DNA of 61,701 nt from a virus. Location: positions 1-61,701 of the IMG/VR virus record IMGVR_UViG_3300008120_000180. One strand, written 5' to 3'. The position numbers were made by a program, and so were the translations under genes. Below are positions 36,641-47,399 of the stretch, in pieces. The notes below the pieces were generated by a model. It was given only the letters and a program-made list of their open reading frames with translations, had not been told where the DNA came from and searched no databases. Within the stretch, counting starts at the first letter, position 1. Each line of letters opens with the position of its first letter.

Positions 36641-36716
36641 TGGAGCCACGAGACAGAGTTGAACTGTCAACCTACGGTTTACAAAACCGTTGCTCTGCCA
36701 ATTGAGCTATCGTGGC
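36641..36716 (-). tRNA. tRNA-Thr(TGT)
   Basis: Acceptor GCCACGA/TCGTGGC, anticodon loop TTTGTAA with anticodon TGT, normal variable loop and T-arm, and an encoded CCA (minus strand, at 36641-36643). A standard class I tRNA that reads ACA codons. Confidence 0.88.
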
Positions 36717-36717
36717 A

Positions 36718-36870
36718 TTACTTTTTCTTTCTCTTACAAGCACAATCACATAAACACTTCTTTACACATGGACATTTATCTACACAACAACCATGTGGTT
36801 TACAAAACTTTGGAATTTCCTGAGAGAACAATAAACTACACGAAATAATAAAAGTAATAATCATCTTCAT
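36718..36870 (-). CDS. Tiny secreted cysteine-rich peptide
   Basis: Encodes 50 residues from ATG 36870, which has GGAG 7 bp before it. Residues 1-16 (MKMIITFIISCSLLFS) form a signal peptide. The mature part holds nine Cys in a KxCxPHGCC...CPCVKKCLCDCAC pattern and ends in Lys/Arg. It resembles disulfide-rich or metal-binding secreted peptides but matches no family I know. A possible 30-residue frame (36867-36959) overlaps its start by ATGA and could couple translation. It lies inside the tRNA array, between tRNA-Thr and the abnormal tRNA at 36966. Confidence 0.55.
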   Translation of the reverse strand: MKMIITFIISCSLLFSQEIPKFCKPHGCCVDKCPCVKKCLCDCACKRKKK

Positions 36871-36965
36871 AATTTTCTCCATAATCTTGTTTGGGGATTT
36901 TTATAGTCTTTGAGTTTTGTTTGCTCCTTACTCTGGGTGACTAATGCCAGAAGCCCCATCTTATT

Positions 36966-37055
36966 TATTCGGTGTTGGATTCGAACCAACATTTACCAGG
37001 ACGGAATCGAACCGTCTCTTTCTACCGTCGTAGAAAACACCAAGTTTACCGAATA
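36966..37055 (-). tRNA. tRNA-like element with two T-arm-like stems
   Basis: Ends pair as TATTCGG/CCGAATA and the 3' T-arm GTTGG-TTCGAAT-CCAAC is perfect. Inside is a second T-arm-like stem, GACGG-TTCGATT-CCGTC. The stem at the expected anticodon position, TCTAC-GACG-GTAGA, has only a four-base loop. Read as a class II tRNA it lacks a normal anticodon loop; read with GACGG/CCGTC as the anticodon arm it would be a Ser (CGA) tRNA with an extra stem in the D region. No CCA encoded. A decayed tRNA is possible. Confidence 0.5.
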
Positions 37056-37060
37056 AATTT

Positions 37061-37160
37061 TGGTCCCCCCGCTCCGAATCGAACGGAGAACGTGCTCTAA
37101 TCTGGAGCCACGGAGTGCCGACTTATAAGATCGGTGTTTTACCAATTAAACTACAGGGGG
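37061..37160 (-). tRNA. tRNA with TAT anticodon and giant variable arm
   Basis: Acceptor CCCCCTG/CGGGGGG, D-arm GTTT/AAAC, anticodon arm CCGAT-CTTATAA-GTCGG (anticodon TAT, Ile AUA codons), T-arm CTCCG-TTCGATT-CGGAG, discriminator A and encoded CCA. The variable region is 29 bases and folds as CGTGGCTC-CAGATTA-GAGCACG with one bulge. tRNA-Ile normally has a five-base variable loop, so this is a class II-like body with a class I anticodon. Confidence 0.7.
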
Positions 37161-37190
37161 TTTGGAATATTATTTTCTAATCACAAAATT

Positions 37191-37276
37191 TGGCTCACCG
37201 ACTAGGATTCGAACCTAGATGCGTCTTTCGACTGCCGCATTAACAGTGCGGTGACTTACCATTAGTCTATCGGTGA
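37191..37276 (-). tRNA. Class II tRNA with GTT anticodon (Ser-like body)
   Basis: Acceptor TCACCGA/TCGGTGA, D-arm GACT/AGTC, anticodon arm CCGCA-CTGTTAA-TGCGG (anticodon GTT, Asn codons), T-arm CTAGG-TTCGAAT-CCTAG, discriminator G, encoded CCA. The 16-base variable arm contains GTC-GAAA-GAC. Long variable arm and G73 are serine-tRNA traits, and bacterial SerRS reads those rather than the anticodon. A normal tRNA-Asn(GTT) also exists at 37389. Confidence 0.78.
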
Positions 37277-37285
37277 AAAACTTTT

Positions 37286-37359
37286 TGGCACCTCTGCTCC
37301 GACTCGAACGGAGAACGACAGTTTTGGAGACTGTTATGTTACCATTACACCACAGAGAT
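37286..37359 (-). tRNA. tRNA-Trp(CCA)
   Basis: Acceptor ATCTCTG/CAGAGGT, anticodon arm ACAGT-CTCCAAA-ACTGT with anticodon CCA, normal variable loop, T-arm CTCCG-TTCGAGT-CGGAG, discriminator G and encoded CCA. Confidence 0.85.
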
Positions 37360-37364
37360 AAAAC

Positions 37365-37372
37365 TATTTATA
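37365..37372 (-). promoter_or_regulatory. Late promoter box inside the tRNA array
   Basis: TATAAATA on the minus strand, between tRNA-Asn and tRNA-Trp, just upstream of the latter. A second exact copy lies at 37555-37562 before tRNA-Glu. They suggest that the array is also transcribed late. Confidence 0.45.
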
Positions 37373-37388
37373 GTTATTTTTAATAAAT

Positions 37389-37464
37389 TGGCTCCGGAGG
37401 CAGGACTCGAACCTACAACATCCTGATTAACAGTCAGGCGCATCTACCATTGAGCTACTCCGGA
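37389..37464 (-). tRNA. tRNA-Asn(GTT)
   Basis: Acceptor TCCGGAG/CTCCGGA, D-arm GCTC type, anticodon arm CCTGA-CTGTTAA-TCAGG with anticodon GTT, short variable loop, G73 and encoded CCA. A standard class I asparagine tRNA. Confidence 0.88.
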
Positions 37465-37470
37465 AAAATT

Positions 37471-37547
37471 TGGCGTCGTCGACGGGGATCGAACCCGCAA
37501 TCTCCACCTTGAAAGGGTGGTGGCTTAACCAATTTGCCTACAACGAC
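37471..37547 (-). tRNA. tRNA-Glu(TTC)
   Basis: Acceptor GTCGTTG/CGACGAC, anticodon arm CCACC-CTTTCAA-GGTGG with anticodon TTC, T-arm GCGGG-TTCGATC-CCCGT, discriminator G and encoded CCA. Confidence 0.85.
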
Positions 37548-37554
37548 TTAATTA

Positions 37555-37562
37555 TATTTATA
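37555..37562 (-). promoter_or_regulatory. Late promoter box before tRNA-Glu
   Basis: Exact TATAAATA on the minus strand, 8 bp upstream of the tRNA-Glu 5' end. Confidence 0.45.
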
Positions 37563-37649
37563 CGCAAGAGTGGACCTTGAACCCACATGATTTAGCTTTT
37601 AACTAGCAACCAATATTGCCATCGTTTTACCTTGTTAAACTATCTTGCG
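37563..37649 (-). tRNA. tRNA-like element, anticodon uncertain
   Basis: Acceptor CGCAAGA/TCTTGCG, D-arm GTTT/AAAC and T-arm GTGGG-TTCAAGG-TCCAC are clear. The 87-base length implies a long variable arm. The best anticodon stem, GGCAA-TATTGG-TTGCT, has a six-base loop, and the next stretch (AGTTAAAAGCT) is only weakly paired, so no anticodon can be assigned safely. CCA is not encoded. A decaying or processed tRNA is likely. Confidence 0.5.
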
Positions 37650-37662
37650 AAAATTCATTTTT

Positions 37663-37707
37663 TATAAATAATATTCGAGGATAGAATTGCGGAAACAATT
37701 TCTATCC
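37663..37707 (+). promoter_or_regulatory. Late box plus hairpin leader of homing endonuclease 2
   Basis: TATAAATA (37663-37670), then a stem of GGATAGAATTG (37679-37689) with CAATTTCTATCC (37696-37707, one bulge), then CACAAACTAAGGATA and ATG 37737. Sequence of the stem differs from that of endonuclease 1 but the layout is the same. Confidence 0.6.
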
Positions 37708-37736
37708 CCTAAACACAAACTAAGGATATTTAGCTT

Positions 37737-38420
37737 ATGTCTAATAATATTTATTGTACTTACCTTACCACCTATTCAGGTGATAAACTCCCTCCTCTTT
37801 ATATTGGATCAACTTCAGTAGAAAAAATCAACAAAGGTTATCATGGATCTGTAGAATCTAAGAAATATAAAGAAATCTGGTTATCAGAATTATCTGAGAA
37901 TCCTCATTTATTTCAAACTAAAATTCTAACAACTCATTCTACTAGAGAAGAAGCGTTAGAAGAGGAGGTTCGTTATCAATTAGAACATGATGTTGTTAGA
38001 TCTCCAGAATATATTAATATGGCTGTTGCAAATAAGAAATTCATATTTGTTGATTATGATGATTCAGAATATATAAAGAAAATATCTGAAGCTGGTAGAA
38101 AGAGATACAAAAACCCAGAAGAAAAAAAGAAATCTTCTGAATCTCAAAAAAAGAGATACGAAAACCCAGACGAAAGAAAGAAGACTTCTGAAGCTCAGAA
38201 AAAGAGATATAAGAATGGATTCATAAATCCTATGTTTGGTAAGAGACACACTACAGAAACAAAACTTAAAATGTCTGAAAGTGCTAGTGGATCTAAAAAT
38301 GGTTCTTATGGAAGAAGATGGTTTTACCATCCAGAAACATTAGAGAATATTAAATGTTTACCAGAGGATAAGCCAGAAAACTATATTCCAGGAAGAAAAT
38401 TGTCAATGTTGCAGAGGTAG
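37737..38420 (+). CDS. GIY-YIG homing endonuclease 2
   Basis: Encodes 227 residues. The N-terminal nuclease domain ([32 protein letters not shown]) is close to endonuclease 1, with which it shares most of the first 110 residues. The C-terminal part has three basic repeats (KKRYKNPEEKKKSSE type) and ends with a different module (FGKRHTTETKLKMSE and a WFYHPETLENIKCLPEDKP-like tail). The stop codon and last ten bases lie inside the tRNA-Met gene on the other strand, so the insertion used a tRNA 3' end as its border. Confidence 0.86.
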   Translation: MSNNIYCTYLTTYSGDKLPPLYIGSTSVEKINKGYHGSVESKKYKEIWLSELSENPHLFQTKILTTHSTREEALEEEVRYQLEHDVVRSPEYINMAVANKKFIFVDYDDSEYIKKISEAGRKRYKNPEEKKKSSESQKKRYENPDERKKTSEAQKKRYKNGFINPMFGKRHTTETKLKMSESASGSKNGSYGRRWFYHPETLENIKCLPEDKPENYIPGRKLSMLQR

Positions 38421-38486
38421 GATTCGAACCTTTTGAGACGTCCTCCTGGTTATGAGCCAGGCGAGCTGACCGCTGCTCTACTCTGC
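38411..38486 (-). tRNA. tRNA-Met(CAT), irregular
   Basis: Acceptor GCAGAG/CTCTGC, D-arm GAGC/GCTC and anticodon arm CCTGG-CTCATAA-CCAGG (anticodon CAT) are good. The variable region AGGACGTCTCAAA is longer than normal and the T-stem AAAGG/CCTAC has two mismatches, where GTAGG would be perfect. The tail is ACA, not CCA. The 3' ten bases are shared with the stop region of endonuclease 2. It could serve as Met or as Ile2 after lysidine modification. Confidence 0.6.
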
Positions 38487-38577
38487 TATAAAATCCGGTG
38501 GTTTTGATTTGGCTGGCTCAAAACCAAAAGCCTCAACTAAATAAGATCCAATTGAAATCTACATTAGCCGCAACCTG

Positions 38578-39237
38578 CTAGATTATGCGTCTAGCATTCT
38601 TTAAAACTCGACCTTTTTCCCAACCATTCGGAATTTCTTCGTATGTTTTAATTTTCTTGTTTTCTTTACCATTTGTTATCCAAATTGTTCCATATTGGGA
38701 ATTCAATTCTCCATCATGTTTTCCTTTATGTGAATTAGACATTTTTAATTTAGATTCTTGATTATGTTTTTTACCTAACCAAACACCATTAGGATATTTT
38801 TCAATAAATTTTTCTGTGGCTTTTTTTAAGATTATGTTAACTTTGTTTCTAAACTCAACATCAGAATTATATTTCTCTTTAAAACTTTTTGAGTTTCCTT
38901 TCATTAAGGAATCTAATCTTTTTTTAGTCAAAAACTTTTCTGGATTAGAATTTATATAACTAAACCCACCACAACCACCTTCACATAAGTTATATGTTTG
39001 TTCTAAGTGAACAAAATCTTTATTAACAATTTCTTTTTCTTTTTCGTTCATTGCATCTTCACTATCGAAGATGTATAGTATATCTTTTTTAAAATTATCA
39101 ATTCCATATTTTTTAATGGCACACTTCAGTAACTTACCAGATCCCATATAATTATCATTTAGATCTTTCGTTTGATGTTTACCGATATAAACTTTACCAT
39201 TAATTTTATTTGTTATTTGATATATTAAGTAATGCAT
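38578..39237 (-). CDS. GIY-YIG homing endonuclease 3 (SegA-like)
   Basis: Encodes 219 residues of a different lineage from endonucleases 1, 2 and 4. The start YLIYQITNKINGKVYIGKHQ has classic GIY-YIG spacing, followed by DNYMGSGKLLKCAIKKYG and a catalytic Glu region near 70-80 (EKEIVNKDFV). The C-terminus has a NUMOD3-like SKLKMSNSHKGKH and the common 'WITNGKENKKI...IPNGWEKGR' tail. It sits in the tRNA array between tRNA-Met and tRNA-Pro. A long hairpin containing a late box precedes the ATG. Confidence 0.86.
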   Translation of the reverse strand: MHYLIYQITNKINGKVYIGKHQTKDLNDNYMGSGKLLKCAIKKYGIDNFKKDILYIFDSEDAMNEKEKEIVNKDFVHLEQTYNLCEGGCGGFSYINSNPEKFLTKKRLDSLMKGNSKSFKEKYNSDVEFRNKVNIILKKATEKFIEKYPNGVWLGKKHNQESKLKMSNSHKGKHDGELNSQYGTIWITNGKENKKIKTYEEIPNGWEKGRVLKNARRII

Positions 39238-39247
39238 TTTTATGGTC

Positions 39248-39302
39248 CCGGATTCTTATAAAGAAGTATTACATACTACTATTATTATTTATAAGAATCC
39301 GG
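39248..39302 (-). promoter_or_regulatory. 15 bp hairpin with late promoter in its 5' arm
   Basis: On the minus strand the arms are CCGGATTCTTATAAA and its complement, separated by 25 bases, ending 11 bp before ATG 39237. The late box TATAAATA (39286-39293) overlaps the 5' arm. A transcript from upstream would form the full stem; a late transcript starting near 39280 would lack the 5' arm and leave the start region open. This mirrors T4 genes whose early messages are silenced by a hairpin. Confidence 0.6.
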
Positions 39303-39311
39303 AACTCGATG

Positions 39312-39387
39312 TCGGGATGGCTGGATTCGAACCAGCGTTCTTCTGCTCCCAAGGCAGACGGATTAAACCAAACTTTCCCACATCCCG
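39312..39387 (-). tRNA. tRNA-Pro(TGG)
   Basis: Acceptor CGGGATG/CATCCCG, anticodon arm TCTGC-CTTGGGA-GCAGA with anticodon TGG, T-arm GCTGG-TTCGAAT-CCAGC, discriminator A. The next bases are CA rather than CCA. Confidence 0.85.
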
Positions 39388-39998: not shown

Positions 39999-40562
39999 CT
40001 AGACGATTCTTAGAGTTTCTAAGAACTGCCAGTTGCTTTCACTAATCAGAATATGATTAGATGAATTGTATTCAGATAACTTATCTGTTAACTGAGTTTT
40101 TTCTTTCTTTAGATTGTAGATTTGATTTTCAACTCCTTCAACCATTTCTGTATTGATAAATGAGACATTCATATTTCGAGGGTACACATTAGTATCGCTG
40201 TTAATATGTTCTGCTTCATCTACCATTTCAGTTAGAGGTCGATCCCACTTCTTAACATCTAAAGAGGTAAGCATCGTTAGTTGCTTTTCTACAACAGCTA
40301 GATCGCCTAGAAGAGATGTAATACCAACATTTGTATTTGTAATACCAATCTGGTTCTTAATAGTTGCCAAGATCTTGTATAACTTTTCTTGTTTAACTAA
40401 AACATCAAGAAACTTAACTCTTCCCTCATGCACAAGACACACAACATCAATATTCTTTGTTACAACTTTTGTAGAAGATGGATTTGGTTTGTTGTTCACA
40501 AGCCATTTTTCAATCTCAGAAACAATCTGAGCAGCTTTTCGGAGTGTCACTTTATTTTCCAT
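39999..40562 (-). CDS. Helical hypothetical protein
   Basis: Encodes 187 residues, predicted mainly alpha-helical, with a segment NQIGITNTNVGITSLLGDLA near residue 90 and a C-terminal coiled coil (VENQIYNLKKEKTQLTDKL). The pattern of short helices with 'IxxTN...TSLLGDLAxxEKQLxxL' recalls the DIP1984/septicolysin-like group of small helical proteins, but the match is weak. It has a ribosome site AAAGGTGATAT. It lies upstream of no clear operon partner; function unknown. Confidence 0.5.
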   Translation of the reverse strand: MENKVTLRKAAQIVSEIEKWLVNNKPNPSSTKVVTKNIDVVCLVHEGRVKFLDVLVKQEKLYKILATIKNQIGITNTNVGITSLLGDLAVVEKQLTMLTSLDVKKWDRPLTEMVDEAEHINSDTNVYPRNMNVSFINTEMVEGVENQIYNLKKEKTQLTDKLSEYNSSNHILISESNWQFLETLRIV

Positions 40563-40571
40563 ATATCACCT

Positions 40572-40811
40572 TTATGATTCTTCTTTTGTTAATTTTCTAA
40601 AATAGAATTGATCCCAACCCCAAAGAATTTTTCCTTCTTTATTGGCAAGAACTACATGTCCTGGCATTTGTTCTATCTCACCAATACAGACCAAAACATC
40701 GCCTTGTTTAAATGGAAACTGATACTCGCCTTTCGGCAGATCAAAAACTTCAACTAAAAATGGTTTTTCACGTAATTGTTTAAGTCTTTTTTTGTATAAT
40801 CTGTTTTTCAT
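40572..40811 (-). CDS. Small beta-rich hypothetical protein
   Basis: Encodes 79 residues: a basic N-terminal helix (KKRLKQLREKPF), then a compact beta region (FPFKQGDVLVCIGEIEQMPG, HVVLANKEGKILWGWDQFYF). The 'F-KxGDVLVCIGExExMPGHVVLAxxEGKxxWGxDxFxFRxLT' layout looks like a small SH3-like barrel. It is packed 9 bp before the gene at 39999 and downstream of the ligase, same strand. Family and function unknown. Confidence 0.5.
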   Translation of the reverse strand: MKNRLYKKRLKQLREKPFLVEVFDLPKGEYQFPFKQGDVLVCIGEIEQMPGHVVLANKEGKILWGWDQFYFRKLTKEES

Positions 40812-40833
40812 AACTAATATCTCTTATATTATT

Positions 40834-40862
40834 TGGTCGCAATGGAGGGAGTTGAACCCTAG
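40834..40862 (-). other. 3' fragment of a tRNA gene
   Basis: The minus strand has AGGG-TTCAACT-CCCT as a T-arm, CATTGCG as a 3' acceptor strand, A73 and an encoded CCA, but no matching 5' half (CGCAATG) exists upstream; that place is occupied by the end of the ligase gene. It looks like a tRNA remnant left after recombination at a tRNA 3' end. Confidence 0.5.
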
Positions 40863-40877
40863 ATTCTTCTTTTAAAT

Positions 40878-42194
40878 TTAAATTTTCTCCCCAGCGGTAA
40901 ATCCACGCCAAGACTTAAATCTCGGAAACCGTAGGGAGTAAGTTCCATCTTGATTTTGAGTAACAGCATCTGCAAGGACTTCAGCAATCTGCCCGATCAA
41001 TTTATCTTGATTCCCCCAAATATCGTTACGCTCTTCATCAGAAAATCCCGAGCCAACATTAACTGAGATGTTCTTACCATTATATTCGCCTTCACAAACA
41101 ATCGCACCAAGCGAACCCTTATTCTTACCAGTTCCTTCTTCAACTCCAACAACTCCAAGATCAAGAGAAATAACTGGCTTGGCCTTTAACCAAGAAGAAG
41201 AACGCTTACACTCGTAAGGAGCGTTCAAGTCCTTGATCATAATTCCTTCGTAACCACCTTCGATAGCCAACTCATTAATCTCACGAAGCCGATCTCGGCC
41301 TGCGACGGTCTCGAAATTAATAATTTCTGAAGAAAGAATCTTAATATTCGGAGTGGAATCTTTTACAAGATTGTACCAGATATTAAGTGCTTCAGAACGA
41401 GTCTCCTGAGTTTCTAAACACATTCCGGCAACGAAATCCTTCATAGGAATCATATCAAAGAGATGAAGAACCGCATCAGAAGTCTGAACATTTTCCTTAC
41501 GATTTAATTGCTTCATCAAATCCTGGAACTTTTCCGACATAACTTCACCATCAAAGACCCAGGGTTCAGAAAGAGCCTCAGAAATCTCAGAGAACTGATT
41601 ACGGATATGCGGAAAGTTTTCGAGTTCCTTACCATTACGAGAAAACTGAATTACACGACCATCAGGATAAACAAAGGTAAGAACTCGAACGCCATCTAAC
41701 TTAACTTCAATCTGCTTACGACCAATCAACTTAGACTGCTGATCAGTCGAATCCTGAGCGAGCTGACAAGAAAAAACAGGAACAAGATATTTATCAGAAG
41801 CACGAATGTTATTCACAACTTTATTCACTGTCTTTTCAGACAACCCACAACGAAGATCCTTGATCAGGATCCGACGATACCAATAATTCCATTCATCAAT
41901 CGTAGCCATGGACATAGCACGATTAATTTCATCTTTCGCATTATTACCAGTGATCTTACGATTTAAGAGATTATTCAATAAGCCAACAAATTCAGACCAA
42001 GAAAGACCAGAACCAGATGCGATCTTCTTCTCAGGAACTTGCTTCACACCGAACGTGAGCATATTATCCAAAGCATAACGTATTCCATAAAATAGAATAT
42101 CATTCTTATCACGGGCTTCACGCTCAAGAATCGCTTCTTTACCAAGCCGAGAATTATCGGATTCAAGTGCCTTAATAACTTTCCAGGGAATCAT
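40878..42194 (-). CDS. 30: ATP-dependent DNA ligase (T4 gp30 type)
   Basis: Encodes 438 residues (T4 gp30 is 487). The nucleotidyltransferase motif I is IEVKLDGVRVLTF (adenylated Lys near residue 166); motif III-like region AFDGEVMSE appears as PWVFDGEVMSEKF near 215, motif IV as GGYEGIMIKDL near 315, and motif V as SWLKAKPVISLDL near 335. The C-terminal OB domain follows (VVGVEEGTGKNKGSLGA). It seals nicks in phage DNA. The ATG overlaps the stop of the 64-residue gene upstream. The codon use is slightly richer in G and C than that of the neighbours. Confidence 0.92.
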   Translation of the reverse strand: MIPWKVIKALESDNSRLGKEAILEREARDKNDILFYGIRYALDNMLTFGVKQVPEKKIASGSGLSWSEFVGLLNNLLNRKITGNNAKDEINRAMSMATIDEWNYWYRRILIKDLRCGLSEKTVNKVVNNIRASDKYLVPVFSCQLAQDSTDQQSKLIGRKQIEVKLDGVRVLTFVYPDGRVIQFSRNGKELENFPHIRNQFSEISEALSEPWVFDGEVMSEKFQDLMKQLNRKENVQTSDAVLHLFDMIPMKDFVAGMCLETQETRSEALNIWYNLVKDSTPNIKILSSEIINFETVAGRDRLREINELAIEGGYEGIMIKDLNAPYECKRSSSWLKAKPVISLDLGVVGVEEGTGKNKGSLGAIVCEGEYNGKNISVNVGSGFSDEERNDIWGNQDKLIGQIAEVLADAVTQNQDGTYSLRFPRFKSWRGFTAGEKI

Positions 42195-42388
42195 TAATAG
42201 ATCTCCAAAATTTCTTCGAAACGAGCGATGTAAGATGTGGTATCACAATACGATTCAAGATCGAAAATCGGACAACCGGAAGAATCGACTCGAATATTTT
42301 TAACACACATCGAAAAATCCAATGGGACGCACCAAACCTCATCAAGAATCTTCACTTCTTTAGTGAACTTTCGTAATTCGTTAACCAT
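42194..42388 (-). CDS. Small hypothetical protein before ligase
   Basis: Encodes 64 residues (MVNELRKFTKEVKILDEVWC start, then PLDFSMCVKNIRVDSSGCPI). No motif recognised. Its TAA overlaps the ligase ATG, so the two are coupled. A very good host-type promoter (42395-42423) has its -10 six bases before this ATG, giving a predicted leaderless message. Possible role: ligase partner or translation initiator of the operon; unknown. Confidence 0.6.
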   Translation of the reverse strand: MVNELRKFTKEVKILDEVWCVPLDFSMCVKNIRVDSSGCPIFDLESYCDTTSYIARFEEILEIY

Positions 42389-42394
42389 ACAACC

Positions 42395-42423
42395 ATTATA
42401 CCTTTTTCTGGTGAGGAAGTCAA
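42395..42423 (-). promoter_or_regulatory. Host-type promoter of the ligase operon
   Basis: TTGACT (42418-42423), 17 bp, TATAAT (42395-42400), six bases, ATG 42388. It flanks the left side of the nested inverted repeat. Confidence 0.72.
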
Positions 42424-42440
42424 GGAAATTTGAAATTTTT

Positions 42441-42690
42441 ATTCCCTTTGTTTTGAATGACTTAACTGCAAACTATTGAAAATAAAGAGAATAAAATTTT
42501 CGGCTTCCAGCGGTCCCATAAATTTTGGTATATAAGGGTATATTGAAGGTCGCTGCGATTGCTCCAGGCCCATCCTGGAGCTAAATGCACCCTCCACACG
42601 AATCGATATCGAATGTGCTGAACTTGTTTGAAAATTTTATTCTCTTTAGAATGAGTGACTTGCAGTTAAGTCATTCAAAACAAAGGGAAT
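42441..42690. repeat. Nested perfect inverted repeats, 31 bp and 19 bp
   Basis: This 250 bp stretch lies between divergent promoters in the only gene-free interval above 300 bp. Outer arms: 42441-42471 and 42660-42690, 31 bp, no mismatch. Inner arms: 42483-42501 and 42630-42648, 19 bp, no mismatch. The two are separated by 11 unpaired bases on each side. The 128-base apex contains a further stem, GCTCCAGG-CCCAT-CCTGGAGC (42571-42591), and CGATATCG. No reading frame of note. It could be an origin of replication, a structured RNA, or a pair of inverted regulatory copies. It has no target-site duplication, which argues against a transposon. Confidence 0.8.
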
Positions 42691-42707
42691 ATTCTTTCGA
42701 AAAAATA

Positions 42708-42736
42708 TTGCTTCCTCTCCTCTAGTACGCTATAAT
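42708..42736 (+). promoter_or_regulatory. Host-type promoter, rightward
   Basis: TTGCTT (42708-42713), 17 bp, TATAAT (42731-42736). Drives the gene at 42762, which has a ribosome site AAGGA. The -35 region and first spacer bases (CTTCCTCTCC) resemble those of the divergent ligase promoter. Confidence 0.6.
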
Positions 42737-42761
42737 TGTTCTGTTGGTTGATAAGGAAACT

Positions 42762-42959
42762 ATGAAAATCTATCTGCTAATTGAATCCAAAGAATATCTG
42801 TACGATGATCGTACATTCAAAACGAATTTAGAGGCTTTCGTTTGTCCGGTGGCAGCTAATTTAGAACTACAAAAATTAGAGGCTTCTAAGGAAACCTCTT
42901 ATTCTTATAGGTTAATTTATTACGTCGAGAGTGTATATCTCAATCAACAATCTTTTTGA
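42762..42959 (+). CDS. Small hypothetical protein
   Basis: Encodes 65 residues from ATG 42762, chosen for AAGGAAACT just before it. IYLLIESKEYLYDDRTFKTN, then ANLELQKLEASKETSYSYRL: a small alpha/beta protein without recognised motif. It is the only rightward gene in a leftward block, fired by the promoter at 42708, and converges with the gene at 42940, overlapping its end by 20 bp. Being alone next to the inverted repeat, it may belong to the early regulatory set; function unknown. Confidence 0.55.
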   Translation: MKIYLLIESKEYLYDDRTFKTNLEAFVCPVAANLELQKLEASKETSYSYRLIYYVESVYLNQQSF

Positions 42960-43389
42960 TCGCTGTAAAGTTTATTACACCGTCTAAATTTTCTACTCGC
43001 ACACAGTTCTTTCCAAATTTTTCTGTTAACTCATTAATAGAAAAACTCGCCAAAGTATTTGTTATAAATTTATAGATATAAACATAGTCTTCATATGTTA
43101 TATCGTGTAAAGAACATTTTGCAAATATTCCTGTCTTAAGATCCTTTCTTTCTCTTTCGAAAAAGAACTTAAAGGATCTTTCTTTTTCCGCAAGAAAACA
43201 ATCAATCCAAACATCATCGTTTATCTTATATCCACTATAATCAATATTATTTCTGAATGGGAATTCTTCCTCTTCATTAAAGGATACGTATTTCTGCGAC
43301 CACTCTACAGATTTAATTTTCGGATATTTATCAAATAGCTCTTTAAAGAAAGAAGATAGATCTGTAATTGTATTTAAATTTCTATTCAT
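42940..43389 (-). CDS. Hypothetical protein downstream of gp32
   Basis: Encodes 149 residues, alpha/beta, acidic and aromatic-rich (KYVSFNEEEEFPFRNNI, FKFFFERERKDLKTGIFAKC, YVYIYKFITNTLASFSINEL). No signal peptide or recognised motif. It follows gp32 after the GGGGACC hairpin at 43398-43419 and may be expressed by read-through. It converges with the small plus-strand gene, overlapping it by 20 bp. Family unknown. Confidence 0.5.
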   Translation of the reverse strand: MNRNLNTITDLSSFFKELFDKYPKIKSVEWSQKYVSFNEEEEFPFRNNIDYSGYKINDDVWIDCFLAEKERSFKFFFERERKDLKTGIFAKCSLHDITYEDYVYIYKFITNTLASFSINELTEKFGKNCVRVENLDGVINFTAIKKIVD

Positions 43390-43397
43390 AGTATTTT

Positions 43398-43419
43398 ATG
43401 GGGACCTTTCGGTCCCCAT
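43398..43419. terminator. GGGGACC hairpin after gp32
   Basis: ATGGGGACC-TTTC-GGTCCCCAT lies 7 bp after the gp32 stop. The minus strand lacks a T-run after it (ATAAAATAC), so it may protect the 3' end of gp32 mRNA or give partial termination; the plus strand has ATTCATTTTT. A stem with the same GGGGACC arms occurs at 56536-56558. Confidence 0.55.
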
Positions 43420-43425
43420 TCATTT

Positions 43426-44361
43426 TTACTCTTCAGCTAACTTACGGAAATAATCCAACGAATCATCATCTTCTTCAACTTCACCCGAAGATTTCGAATT
43501 ACCCCAAGGAACATCTTCTGTATCATCAGCAGAAGCAATTGCTTTACTTACTGGTTTTGATTCCATCTTAGCTGGAGAAGATGCTGGCTTAGAAGCACCA
43601 ACTAGGTTGGTCGAAGGTGCCTTAACACCAAGAACTTTATCGAGACGTGCGGATAATTCCTCATAAGTCTTAAAGTTCTTAGGATCGTGAAATTCGTTTA
43701 AATTATATAGCGAATTCCAAACTGTCTCAATAGCAGAATCATCTCCATCTAATAGAGGACATTGATTCTCAAAAATCGAATTATCGTAATTCGGATACCC
43801 ATCAACTCGCTTAATTTTCAAGCGGAAATTAGCACCTTGCCAAAATTCAAAAGGATCGATAGGATCTTCACCTTCGAAGACAGGCTTCATTGCTTCTTGA
43901 ATCTTATCGAAAATTTTCTTACCGTATTTGAATAGAAATACTTTGCCTTCATTTTGAGGATTCTTAGGATCCGAGATTACATAGATATTAGAAATATATT
44001 GTTGCTTACGTTTACGTTTACGAACGATTTCTTTATTCGCTTCAATACCTGTGGCCCATAATTCAGAATTACGTTCTGAACAAGGATCTGGCTTGCCAAT
44101 CGTTGTTAAAGAATTCTCGATATACCAACCACCAGGACCTTGAAATGCATGCGAATACATATTAATCCAAGGCAACTTATCATTCTTACCAGCTGGTAAG
44201 AAACGAATCAATGCAGTTCCATTACCTGTTTTCTCATCAATCGGAACAGACCAAAAACGATCATCTTGATAACTCTTAGTTCCGGAAGACATCTTCTCTA
44301 GTTCGGCAACTAGATTGTTTAAATTACTCTTACTTTTCTTTTTATAATCTGCGAAATTCAT
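43426..44361 (-). CDS. 32: Single-stranded DNA-binding protein gp32
   Basis: Encodes 311 residues (T4 gp32 is 301). N-terminal B domain (FADYKKKSKSNLNNLVAELE), core OB-fold with TALIRFLPAGKND, the ENEGKVFLFKYGKKIFDKI type signature (here NEGKVFLFKYGKKIFDKIQE) and FWQGANFRLKIKRVDGYPNY near 190, and an acidic C-terminal tail (VEEDDDSLDYFRKLAEE) that recruits partners such as gp59. The T4 zinc ligands (His and three Cys) are not kept: only one Cys remains in KPDPCSERNSELW, as in cyanophage versions. It coats ssDNA in replication and recombination. Confidence 0.95.
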   Translation of the reverse strand: MNFADYKKKSKSNLNNLVAELEKMSSGTKSYQDDRFWSVPIDEKTGNGTALIRFLPAGKNDKLPWINMYSHAFQGPGGWYIENSLTTIGKPDPCSERNSELWATGIEANKEIVRKRKRKQQYISNIYVISDPKNPQNEGKVFLFKYGKKIFDKIQEAMKPVFEGEDPIDPFEFWQGANFRLKIKRVDGYPNYDNSIFENQCPLLDGDDSAIETVWNSLYNLNEFHDPKNFKTYEELSARLDKVLGVKAPSTNLVGASKPASSPAKMESKPVSKAIASADDTEDVPWGNSKSSGEVEEDDDSLDYFRKLAEE

Positions 44362-44375
44362 ATATTTCCTTTTTG

Positions 44376-44663
44376 TTAATTGATATTATTTGCTAGTTTT
44401 TTATTAAGATCGTCGATAATTTGCTTTAATACTGCATTTTCTTGCTGAAGTGTAATGATATCTTCTTTATGTTTAATTTCTTCCATTCTAAAGATATCCA
44501 TTAATTCATTGATAACAGATTCAAACACATCATCTAGTTCTCGTTTTACATCAAACAATTCTTTTAAAGATTCAGTAACTTCATGTAATTGAACACCACT
44601 TTCTTGAAGTGAAGAATCTTCAAAATTATCGGAGTCATCTTCTAAATAAATATAATCACTCAT
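44376..44663 (-). CDS. Acidic coiled-coil hypothetical protein
   Basis: Encodes 95 residues: a very acidic start (SDYIYLEDDSDNFEDSS) and a coiled coil from about residue 28 to the end (ELDDVFESVINELMDIF, ITLQQENAVLKQIIDDLNKK). No known family. It is directly upstream of gp32 with its own host-type promoter and ribosome site AAAGGAAATT, so the promoter probably also feeds gp32. Could be a replication accessory protein; unknown. Confidence 0.55.
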   Translation of the reverse strand: MSDYIYLEDDSDNFEDSSLQESGVQLHEVTESLKELFDVKRELDDVFESVINELMDIFRMEEIKHKEDIITLQQENAVLKQIIDDLNKKLANNIN

Positions 44664-44682
44664 AATTTCCTTTCATAATTTA

Positions 44683-44711
44683 ATCATACTACGCTGTTAG
44701 TATTTAGTCAA
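44683..44711 (-). promoter_or_regulatory. Host-type promoter before the gp32 unit
   Basis: TTGACT (44706-44711), 17 bp, TATGAT (44683-44688), then a 13-base leader with AAAGGA and ATG 44663. A second TTGACT starts 5 bp further upstream. Confidence 0.6.
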
Positions 44712-45337
44712 GTCAAAAATATTTCTTTAAACATAGATTTGATTTCTTTCGATTCCGGTAGATAATGCGAAATAAATGGATAATATTTAGTCATTAATAG
44801 ATATTGATCTTTCCAGATAGGATCGAAATCTTTTTTCTTATTCATGTTATTAGAGAATAACATGACAATATCTAAAGCGATAAATGTCTCAATCCTAATG
44901 TCATTCCTTAAAAGGAATTTGAATATAATTGGATGTGTACCTTCTTTTATTTTAAAGACATCAACTATTTCTATTTCAGATTTAAGACAATACTCTCTTA
45001 TAAGAGAGAATTCTTTTTTAAGATAATATCTAATTCCTTCAACATATCCTCTAAACTTAAGATATCTTGTTTCATTATCTTTTTCTAGCAAATCTTTAAC
45101 CCAAAAATTAGAGTTATGTATTTGCTCTACTAACATCTTTTCTATTATTTTTTCTCTACTAAATTTATGTGCCAGTTTATCGAAATGATACTTATCTTTT
45201 CTAGAATTATAAGATGCTTGAGTTGCTTTCGTTTTCCCGTTAAATTTGAAGAAATTATAAGAATTAGAACTAAAGTGCATTTTAAATGCTAGATATAATA
45301 CATAAGCATCAAATCCAGAAATTTGGGTTCCACTCAT
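44708..45337 (-). CDS. 59: Helicase loader gp59
   Basis: Encodes 209 residues (T4 gp59 is 217). Helical throughout, with TQASYNSRKDKYHFDKLAHK followed by FSREKIIEKMLVEQIHNSNF and WVKDLL, aligned with T4 'AAYQKRRDKYFFQKLSEKYKLKELALIFISNLVANQDAWIGDI'. The C-terminal half (FKFLLRNDIRIETFIALDIV) parallels T4 'FKLLQSNIISFETFILLD'. gp59 loads the replicative helicase on gp32-coated forks. Gene order gp33-gp59-gp32 is as in T4. Its ATG overlaps the gp33 stop. Confidence 0.88.
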   Translation of the reverse strand: MSGTQISGFDAYVLYLAFKMHFSSNSYNFFKFNGKTKATQASYNSRKDKYHFDKLAHKFSREKIIEKMLVEQIHNSNFWVKDLLEKDNETRYLKFRGYVEGIRYYLKKEFSLIREYCLKSEIEIVDVFKIKEGTHPIIFKFLLRNDIRIETFIALDIVMLFSNNMNKKKDFDPIWKDQYLLMTKYYPFISHYLPESKEIKSMFKEIFLT

Positions 45338-45923: not shown

Positions 45924-47399
45924 TTATTTCTCCAATTTAATGTCTAAAATTTGATATTCAAAATCTTCTTCGTTATATATCTTAATTCTTTCTTTGAAGT
46001 GATTATATGCATAATTATTTTTATTCTTGTATCGCAAATCATCTACTAAATCAAATAGAACAGACGGACCAGATTTCTTATCTGAAGTCCTCAGAACTCT
46101 TCCGATTGATTGAAGAGTTCTGACTCTTGATTTAGAAGGATGTGTGAATATAATATTCTTAAGAGTAGGAATATTAATACCTGTAGAGAAAATTTGAGAA
46201 GATGCGACAATTATTGCATTATCTACATTGTCAATTGACTTTCTTACTGATTCTCTTATCTCAGTTTCAGTTCCACCAAATATAAAGAACACTGGTTTAT
46301 TAGTACATTCTTGTATTAAATCAAATATAATTCTTCCGTGTGCTTCAACTCTTGAGAACAATATTAATGTGTTTCCTTTTAAAGATGCCGCTAATTTTGC
46401 AATATATCTGTTTCTCTTCTCATTAGAGATAATAAATTGCACTTCATCTTCCCAAGAGGCTATCTTTAATTCTTTCTTTGTTATATCAGAGTATGAAAAA
46501 ACTAAGACATTTATATTTAAATCAGCTAACTTTTTTTCTTTTATTAATTTAGAAGTAGTGGTTAAGGAATACGCTTTCCCGAATAAACCTTCTACTTGTA
46601 GTTGATGTAATTGTTGGCCGGAAAGAGTTCCAGTAAAGCCAAATCTGTAATGTGCATTTACACACTTATCGAATAGCTTAGAAACTTCTTTTGCTGCGTA
46701 TAAATGTGTTTCGTCTCCGATAACAACAGAGAAATTATGAAACCATGATTCAGGATTATCATATATAGATTGCCAAGTGGAAATTATAATTCGCTTCTGC
46801 TCTCTAACCATTCCTGAATATATTCTTGTAATTTTATTAGAAGGTTCCCAATAAGGGAAGTAATCACAAATATCAGAATACATCTGTTCCACAAGAGATG
46901 TTGTAGGACAGATTAATAGAATATCGCCTTCGTCATTATCATAGTAAAACTTAATAATAGATGCTATTATCAGACTTTTGCCAGAAGCAGTTGGACTTAA
47001 AGCGATATATCTAGGATTTGTTATTGCACGTCTAATACCTTCTATCTGATAATCTCTTGGTTCAATACTTTGACCGTTATTGTACCATTTCGTTTGAGAA
47101 ATAAAATCATTCGCTTCTTTCTCGCTATAAGAGATATTATCAGATTCTTGTATAAAGTTATAACCATTATCCTTTGCATAACTTTCTACATAATGACTTA
47201 AACCTTTATGTAGTGTACAATTCTTCTTATTAAGAAGATGTATTTTCCCATCCCAAAGTCTTCTCTTAAACTTTGACATAAACTTAGCATTTGGAACGTC
47301 AAATGAAAGACGTTCCCATAATTCTTGAATTATACCTGGATCTGTTTCTACTCGGATCCATGTTGCGTTTATGTTAGTTAATTTTATAGTTGCATTCAC
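45924..47399 (-). CDS. uvsW: UvsW recombination helicase
   Basis: Encodes 491 residues (T4 UvsW is about 500). An N-terminal substrate domain (WERLSFDVPNAKFMSKFKRR) is followed by the SF2 core: Q-like EPRDYQIEGIRRA, motif I SPTASGKS near residue 135, motif II GDETHLY near 230, motif III GFTGTL near 262, and motif VI QSIGRVLRTSD near 450. UvsW unwinds branched DNA and R-loops and moves replication from origins to recombination. It comes after uvsY in this operon. No truncation. Confidence 0.94.
   Translation of the reverse strand: MNATIKLTNINATWIRVETDPGIIQELWERLSFDVPNAKFMSKFKRRLWDGKIHLLNKKNCTLHKGLSHYVESYAKDNGYNFIQESDNISYSEKEANDFISQTKWYNNGQSIEPRDYQIEGIRRAITNPRYIALSPTASGKSLIIASIIKFYYDNDEGDILLICPTTSLVEQMYSDICDYFPYWEPSNKITRIYSGMVREQKRIIISTWQSIYDNPESWFHNFSVVIGDETHLYAAKEVSKLFDKCVNAHYRFGFTGTLSGQQLHQLQVEGLFGKAYSLTTTSKLIKEKKLADLNINVLVFSYSDITKKELKIASWEDEVQFIISNEKRNRYIAKLAASLKGNTLILFSRVEAHGRIIFDLIQECTNKPVFFIFGGTETEIRESVRKSIDNVDNAIIVASSQIFSTGINIPTLKNIIFTHPSKSRVRTLQSIGRVLRTSDKKSGPSVLFDLVDDLRYKNKNNYAYNHFKERIKIYNEEDFEYQILDIKLEK

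What the first reader, a model, noticed from the sequence alone, without database searches (positions are those of the whole stretch)
42441..42690. Nested perfect inverted repeats (31 + 19 bp) between divergent promoters
Seen: two perfect inverted repeats, separated by exactly 11 unpaired bases on each side, around a 128-base apex with its own 8 bp stem, bounded by outward-facing TTGACT/TTGCTT-TATAAT promoters. It lacks an open frame. Inferred: candidates are an origin of replication, a stable regulatory RNA, or inverted copies of one protein-binding region serving both promoters. The symmetry of the 11-base gap suggests that spacing matters.
Basis: seen in the sequence. Interest (0 to 1): 0.78.

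Follow-up and report, generated by a model that had tools for sequence, protein, structure and literature searches.

The report
Back-to-back mobile phage promoter cassettes
The nested inverted repeat is two copies of a small "hairpin plus promoter" cassette placed back to back between two genes of an uncultured T4-like phage; related phages carry many such cassettes and use them to switch on early genes and, as one pair of relatives shows, to shuffle genes, so the feature is real but of a largely known kind.

Summary
In detail: arms 42440-42501 and 42630-42691 match at 54 of 62 positions (32 and 19 bp perfect, 11-nt mismatched block), around a 128-nt apex and between outward sigma70-type promoters. 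Order-2 Markov surrogates reach a score of 17; the real repeat scores 32. Three other public contigs carry it unchanged, which argues against a foldback artefact.

It is not one large structure. Each arm folds alone into a hairpin, ending 16 nt from its own promoter's -35 box. A covariance model of the hairpin finds the same cassette in 24 of 28 related viral contigs, with 11 places in one 77-kb contig. Of 35 hairpins checked, 33 have such a promoter. Tandem copies start at the preceding gene's stop codon. Doubled copies point outwards in all 12 cases with both promoters. Two relatives about 98-99.5% identical differ by a 391-bp deletion between two cassettes. This matches the "promoter-early stem-loop" (PeSL) cassettes of T4-type phages.

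Differences: AU-rich hairpins without a clear terminator tail, start codons 6-8 nt after the -10 box (probably leaderless mRNA), recurring GC-richer spacers in divergent pairs. Origin or stable-RNA readings are not supported.

The parts
42440..42501 (-). Left arm = upstream hairpin of the leftward cassette; local hairpin 42440-42493 on the minus strand
   Evidence: covariance model R1 hit 42431-42499 minus, 70.7 bits
42630..42691 (+). Right arm = upstream hairpin of the rightward cassette; local hairpin 42638-42691, -21 kcal/mol, z -5.85
   Evidence: R1 hit 42632-42700 plus, 81.7 bits
42472..42482 (.). 11-nt diverged block of the left arm (counterpart 42649-42659): a variable part of the hairpin's 5' arm
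42649..42659 (.). 11-nt diverged block of the right arm
42502..42629 (.). 128-nt spacer (apex), GC 0.48 against 0.33 for the window; 8-bp stem 42561-42568/42574-42581; function unknown
   Evidence: outside the window found only in the three identical contigs
42395..42423 (-). Leftward sigma70-type promoter TTGACT-17-TATAAT
42708..42736 (+). Rightward sigma70-type promoter TTGCTT-17-TATAAT
42194..42388 (-). 64-aa gene, ATG 6 nt after the -10 box (probable leaderless start), first gene before DNA ligase (40878-42194); homologue at the same place in L019
42744..42959 (+). Small gene of the rightward cassette: TTG 7 nt after the -10 box (71 aa) or in-frame ATG at 42762 with an AAGGA Shine-Dalgarno (65 aa); no family match

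Best explanation
The element is a pair of PeSL-like regulatory cassettes (hairpin, then sigma70-type promoter, then a start codon a few bases later) in back-to-back orientation. Host RNA polymerase would fire both promoters outwards: leftwards for the 64-aa gene and DNA ligase, rightwards for a small gene of unknown function. The hairpin is the upstream boundary of each cassette. In tandem copies it sits at the stop codon of the preceding gene, so it most likely ends or stabilises incoming transcripts and insulates the promoter (inferred). In the divergent site two such boundaries meet with a spacer between them. Because each hairpin is itself nearly palindromic, and because the two copies here are close to identical, they form a nested inverted repeat. 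The cassettes are also the homology at which gene modules are swapped (seen directly in relatives). The near-identity of the two arms probably reflects recent inverted duplication or conversion between cassettes (inferred).
For: Same hairpin found by covariance model in 13 of 15 and 11 of 13 related contigs, 11 places in G007. 33 of 35 listed hairpins, not all independent, have a TTGNNN-16/18-TANNNT promoter close to a stem end (fixed distances). 12 of 12 doubled hairpins with two promoters point outwards. Tandem hairpins mostly start about -4 to +13 nt from the preceding stop codon. Pair-preserving changes in the stem: 5 of 15 pairs in 10 sequences; same trend in 64 distinct rows. L024 and L025 (98.4 and 99.5% identical on the two sides) differ by 391 bp between two cassettes, joined within AGGTATA[A/C]TGGTTCTA. 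T4-type neighbourhood: gp32, gp59-like helicase loader, UvsW-like helicase, ligase. RB49, the phage in which PeSLs were described, shows the layout stem-loop then sigma70 promoter at about the same distance.
Against: The hairpins lack a clear U-run and the terminator scan does not call them, whereas PeSL stem-loops are described as effective terminators. R1 finds nothing in RB49 1-50000, so no sequence homology to the original PeSLs is shown. Within the window itself only this one pair exists. Promoter activity and early timing are inferred from sequence alone. The two primary PeSL papers are not in the library and were read only through citing papers. The 12 doubled sites and the 35 hairpins include homologous loci of related contigs. 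The covariation alignment A2 contains both strand readings of the same palindromic sites.
Confidence: 0.86

Rival explanations
1. Palindromic operator: the hairpin sequence is a DNA site for a phage or host regulator that controls both promoters, and the inverted pair lets one complex loop the 128-nt spacer.
For: Fixed distance to the -35 box on both sides; conserved loop and upper-arm sequence ACTTGCA / TTGAAAACAAA; doubled sites are always divergent.
Against: Stem bases change in pair-preserving ways across copies, which suits a structure better than a fixed recognition sequence; spacer length varies from 0 to 178 nt; no candidate regulator identified.
Confidence: 0.25
2. A structured or stable regulatory RNA is transcribed across the whole 250-nt repeat, for example by read-through of the gp32-side operon, and processed at the long duplex.
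For: Whole-interval fold -106 kcal/mol, z -11.9; minus-strand genes upstream could read through.
Against: Most of that energy is the trivial consequence of two inverted copies; both promoters face outwards; the apex alone folds unremarkably (z -0.7 and -1.8); relatives keep the single cassettes, not the long duplex.
Confidence: 0.05
3. Origin of replication with an extruding cruciform.
For: Long inverted repeat, between divergent promoters, close to replication genes.
Against: The hairpin is present at many sites per genome; no clear GC-skew reversal across 40000-45000; placed by gene starts.
Confidence: 0.03
4. Miniature inverted-repeat transposable element with TA flanks.
For: 252-bp unit with 62-bp terminal inverted repeats ending in TA.
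Against: Copies in relatives are single hairpins tied to promoters, not whole units with two terminal repeats; spacers differ between families and the window apex has no dispersed copies.
Confidence: 0.03

Closest known systems
PeSL (promoter-early stem-loop) cassettes of T4-type phages RB49 and phi1 (Arbiol et al. 2010, doi 10.1093/gbe/evq006; Comeau et al. 2014, doi 10.1093/gbe/evu129; cited through PMC4503421)
   Same: Stem-loop followed by a strong sigma70-like promoter between small genes, many copies per genome (in relatives), recombination between copies swaps or deletes gene modules, T4-type genome.
   Different: Here the stem is long and AU-rich without a U-run; RB49 examples have GC-rich stems with T-runs, a leader and a Shine-Dalgarno. 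Here the start codon usually lies 6-8 nt after the -10 box. Double divergent cassettes with recurring spacers; I could not check whether these were described before.
Promoter plus inverted-repeat motif of haloarchaeal myovirus HGTV-1 (reviewed in PMC3950731)
   Different: Archaeal promoter; no sequence relation tested.

Membership tests
PeSL cassette of T4-type phages | Lies in a T4-type myovirus genome | tested here: met
   PHROG matches to gp32-type ssDNA-binding protein, helicase loader, UvsW-like helicase and DNA ligase next to it
PeSL cassette of T4-type phages | Strong sigma70-like early promoter | tested here: met
   TTGACT-17-TATAAT and TTGCTT-17-TATAAT; early timing itself not testable here
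PeSL cassette of T4-type phages | Stem-loop joined to the promoter | tested here: met
   Local hairpins in each arm, -35 box 16 nt away; same layout in 33 of 35 hairpins
PeSL cassette of T4-type phages | Stem-loop is an effective transcription terminator | tested here: inconclusive
   Terminator scan does not call it and the U-tail is weak or absent, but tandem copies sit at stop codons; needs an experiment
PeSL cassette of T4-type phages | Repeated in plastic, small-gene regions | tested here: met
   11 places in G007 and copies in 24 of 28 related contigs; only this pair in the window
PeSL cassette of T4-type phages | Mediates modular shuffling by recombination | tested here: met
   391-bp cassette-to-cassette deletion between two near-identical relatives; shown in relatives, not at the window site
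PeSL cassette of T4-type phages | Sequence relation to the RB49 cassettes (not a stated requirement) | tested here: not met
   Model R1 has no match in RB49 1-50000
PeSL cassette of T4-type phages | Forms encapsidated mini-circles (from my knowledge of Arbiol 2010) | not testable with these tools
   Needs phage DNA
Rfam RNA family | Match at the family's gathering score | tested here: not met
   No match; only chance microRNA-precursor hairpin scores far below threshold

The most novel reading that the evidence does not exclude
In this uncultured T4-like lineage the cassette is a new composite form: an AU-rich, structure-conserved hairpin plus promoter plus built-in leaderless start codon, which also exists as a divergent double module (hairpin-spacer-hairpin) whose spacers belong to a few families that recur as units at different gene pairs, including within one genome.
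Probability: 0.4. Interest if true: 0.5.

Novelty: new variant of a known kind. Interest (0 to 1): 0.36.

Why it matters
It explains a striking symmetric structure by a known building block and extends PeSL-like cassettes to an uncultured T4-like group with no close isolate found, with a clean natural example of cassette-to-cassette gene deletion. The probable leaderless early genes, and the recurring spacers of the divergent pairs, are testable and possibly new.

Tried and rejected
Rfam at gathering and relaxed thresholds: only chance hairpins. Named phages by DNA: no match to the 42000-43200 region and no relevant match to the cassette. 16-base and 18-base arm patterns: besides the identical contigs and the L127/L128/L134 cassettes, hits look like chance. 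Apex pattern: only the identical contigs and one chance hit. Apex as coding remnant: relatives' spacers differ by indels not in multiples of three, so dropped. Apex homology to the L143 spacer is weak (z 4.3 among many tests) and not claimed. Origin: no clear skew change. A hand-typed N-terminus was replaced by a direct reading, with the same alignment.

Full report
Observation. The nested inverted repeat is real and at the stated place: arms 42440-42501 and 42630-42691, 54 of 62 positions complementary, 32 and 19 bp perfect, all mismatches in one 11-nt block, a 128-nt apex with an 8-bp stem, and outward promoters whose -35 boxes both start 16 nt from the arm edge. It scores 32 where Markov surrogates reach at most 17 and is the only long inverted repeat of the window. 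Three other public contigs carry it inside 2,207 bp of identical DNA, and the arms differ from each other, so a foldback artefact is unlikely.

Context. The window is a fragment of a T4-like phage: gp32-type protein 43426-44361, helicase loader 44708-45337, UvsW-like helicase 45924-47399 and DNA ligase 40878-42194, all on the minus strand. The repeat lies between a 64-aa gene in front of ligase and a small plus-strand gene. No close isolate was found: gp32 and ligase are under 60% identical to any named phage.

What the arms are. Each arm folds alone into a hairpin (right -21 kcal/mol, z -5.85; left weaker). Relatives of 71-75% ligase identity lack the nested repeat but contain single hairpins with the same sequence, each next to a promoter. 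A covariance model of ten copies found the hairpin in 13 of 15 and 11 of 13 related contigs, with 11 places in one 77-kb contig. Across copies the stem changes in pair-preserving ways (the larger alignment includes both strand readings of the same sites, so it is indicative only).

The cassette. Of 35 listed hairpins 33 have a sigma70-type promoter close to a stem end; in 29 of 34 promoters an ORF begins with ATG 6-8 nt after the -10 box, typically TATAAT-GGTTCT-ATG, as in the window's leftward gene. Other strong promoters of the window show the same (51566+, 32536-, 32054-), so early messages are probably leaderless (inferred). Tandem hairpins mostly start within about 13 nt of the preceding stop codon.

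Divergent doubles. In 12 of 12 doubled hairpins with two promoters, the promoters point outwards, with a spacer of 0 or 128-178 nt. Spacers are GC-richer than their loci and fall into three families reused at different gene pairs. The window's spacer belongs to none clearly. Because the hairpins are nearly palindromic, many pairs can also pair with each other at long range; the window pair is the one with the highest inverted identity (57 of 68). The 11-nt gap is just where the two copies differ.

Shuffling. L024 and L025, 98.4% and 99.5% identical on the two sides, differ by 391 bp: L024 joins the first cassette of L025 to the gene of the second, with the crossover in a shared AGGTATA[A/C]TGGTTCTA. 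This is recombination between cassettes.

Known kind. Stem-loop plus early promoter cassettes that mediate modular shuffling are the PeSLs of T4-type phages (Arbiol 2010, Comeau 2014; cited through PMC4503421; compared with HGTV-1 in PMC3950731). RB49 shows the same layout with GC-rich terminator stems and leadered genes. The present cassettes meet the layout, repetition and shuffling criteria; terminator function is undecided and there is no sequence relation. I therefore call them PeSL-like, a variant of a known kind.

Noticed in passing
window 51566+, 32536-, 32054-, 42423-: Strong sigma70-type promoters with the ATG 6-7 nt after the -10 box: probable leaderless early genes; only 23 of 58 genes have a Shine-Dalgarno-like stretch.
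   Followed up: partly
L136, L139, L175, L019 and L137, L138, L151, L176 and L017, L143, L178 (spacers between divergent hairpins): Three recurring families of GC-richer spacers, 128-178 nt, reused at different gene pairs; function unknown.
   Followed up: partly
L024 against L025 and L026: Cassette-to-cassette deletion of a 93-aa gene between near-identical phages.
   Followed up: yes
L183 923-1058, L177 743-879: Divergent pairs with zero spacer: two hairpins directly abutting.
   Followed up: partly
window 42388-42377, L183: Different genes behind the cassettes share the first codons ATGGTTAA[C/T]GAA, as if the start of the reading frame belongs to the cassette.
   Followed up: no
window 36641-39387: Cluster of tRNA genes, including one with an odd 4-base anticodon call (attg, 37562-37649).
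   Followed up: no
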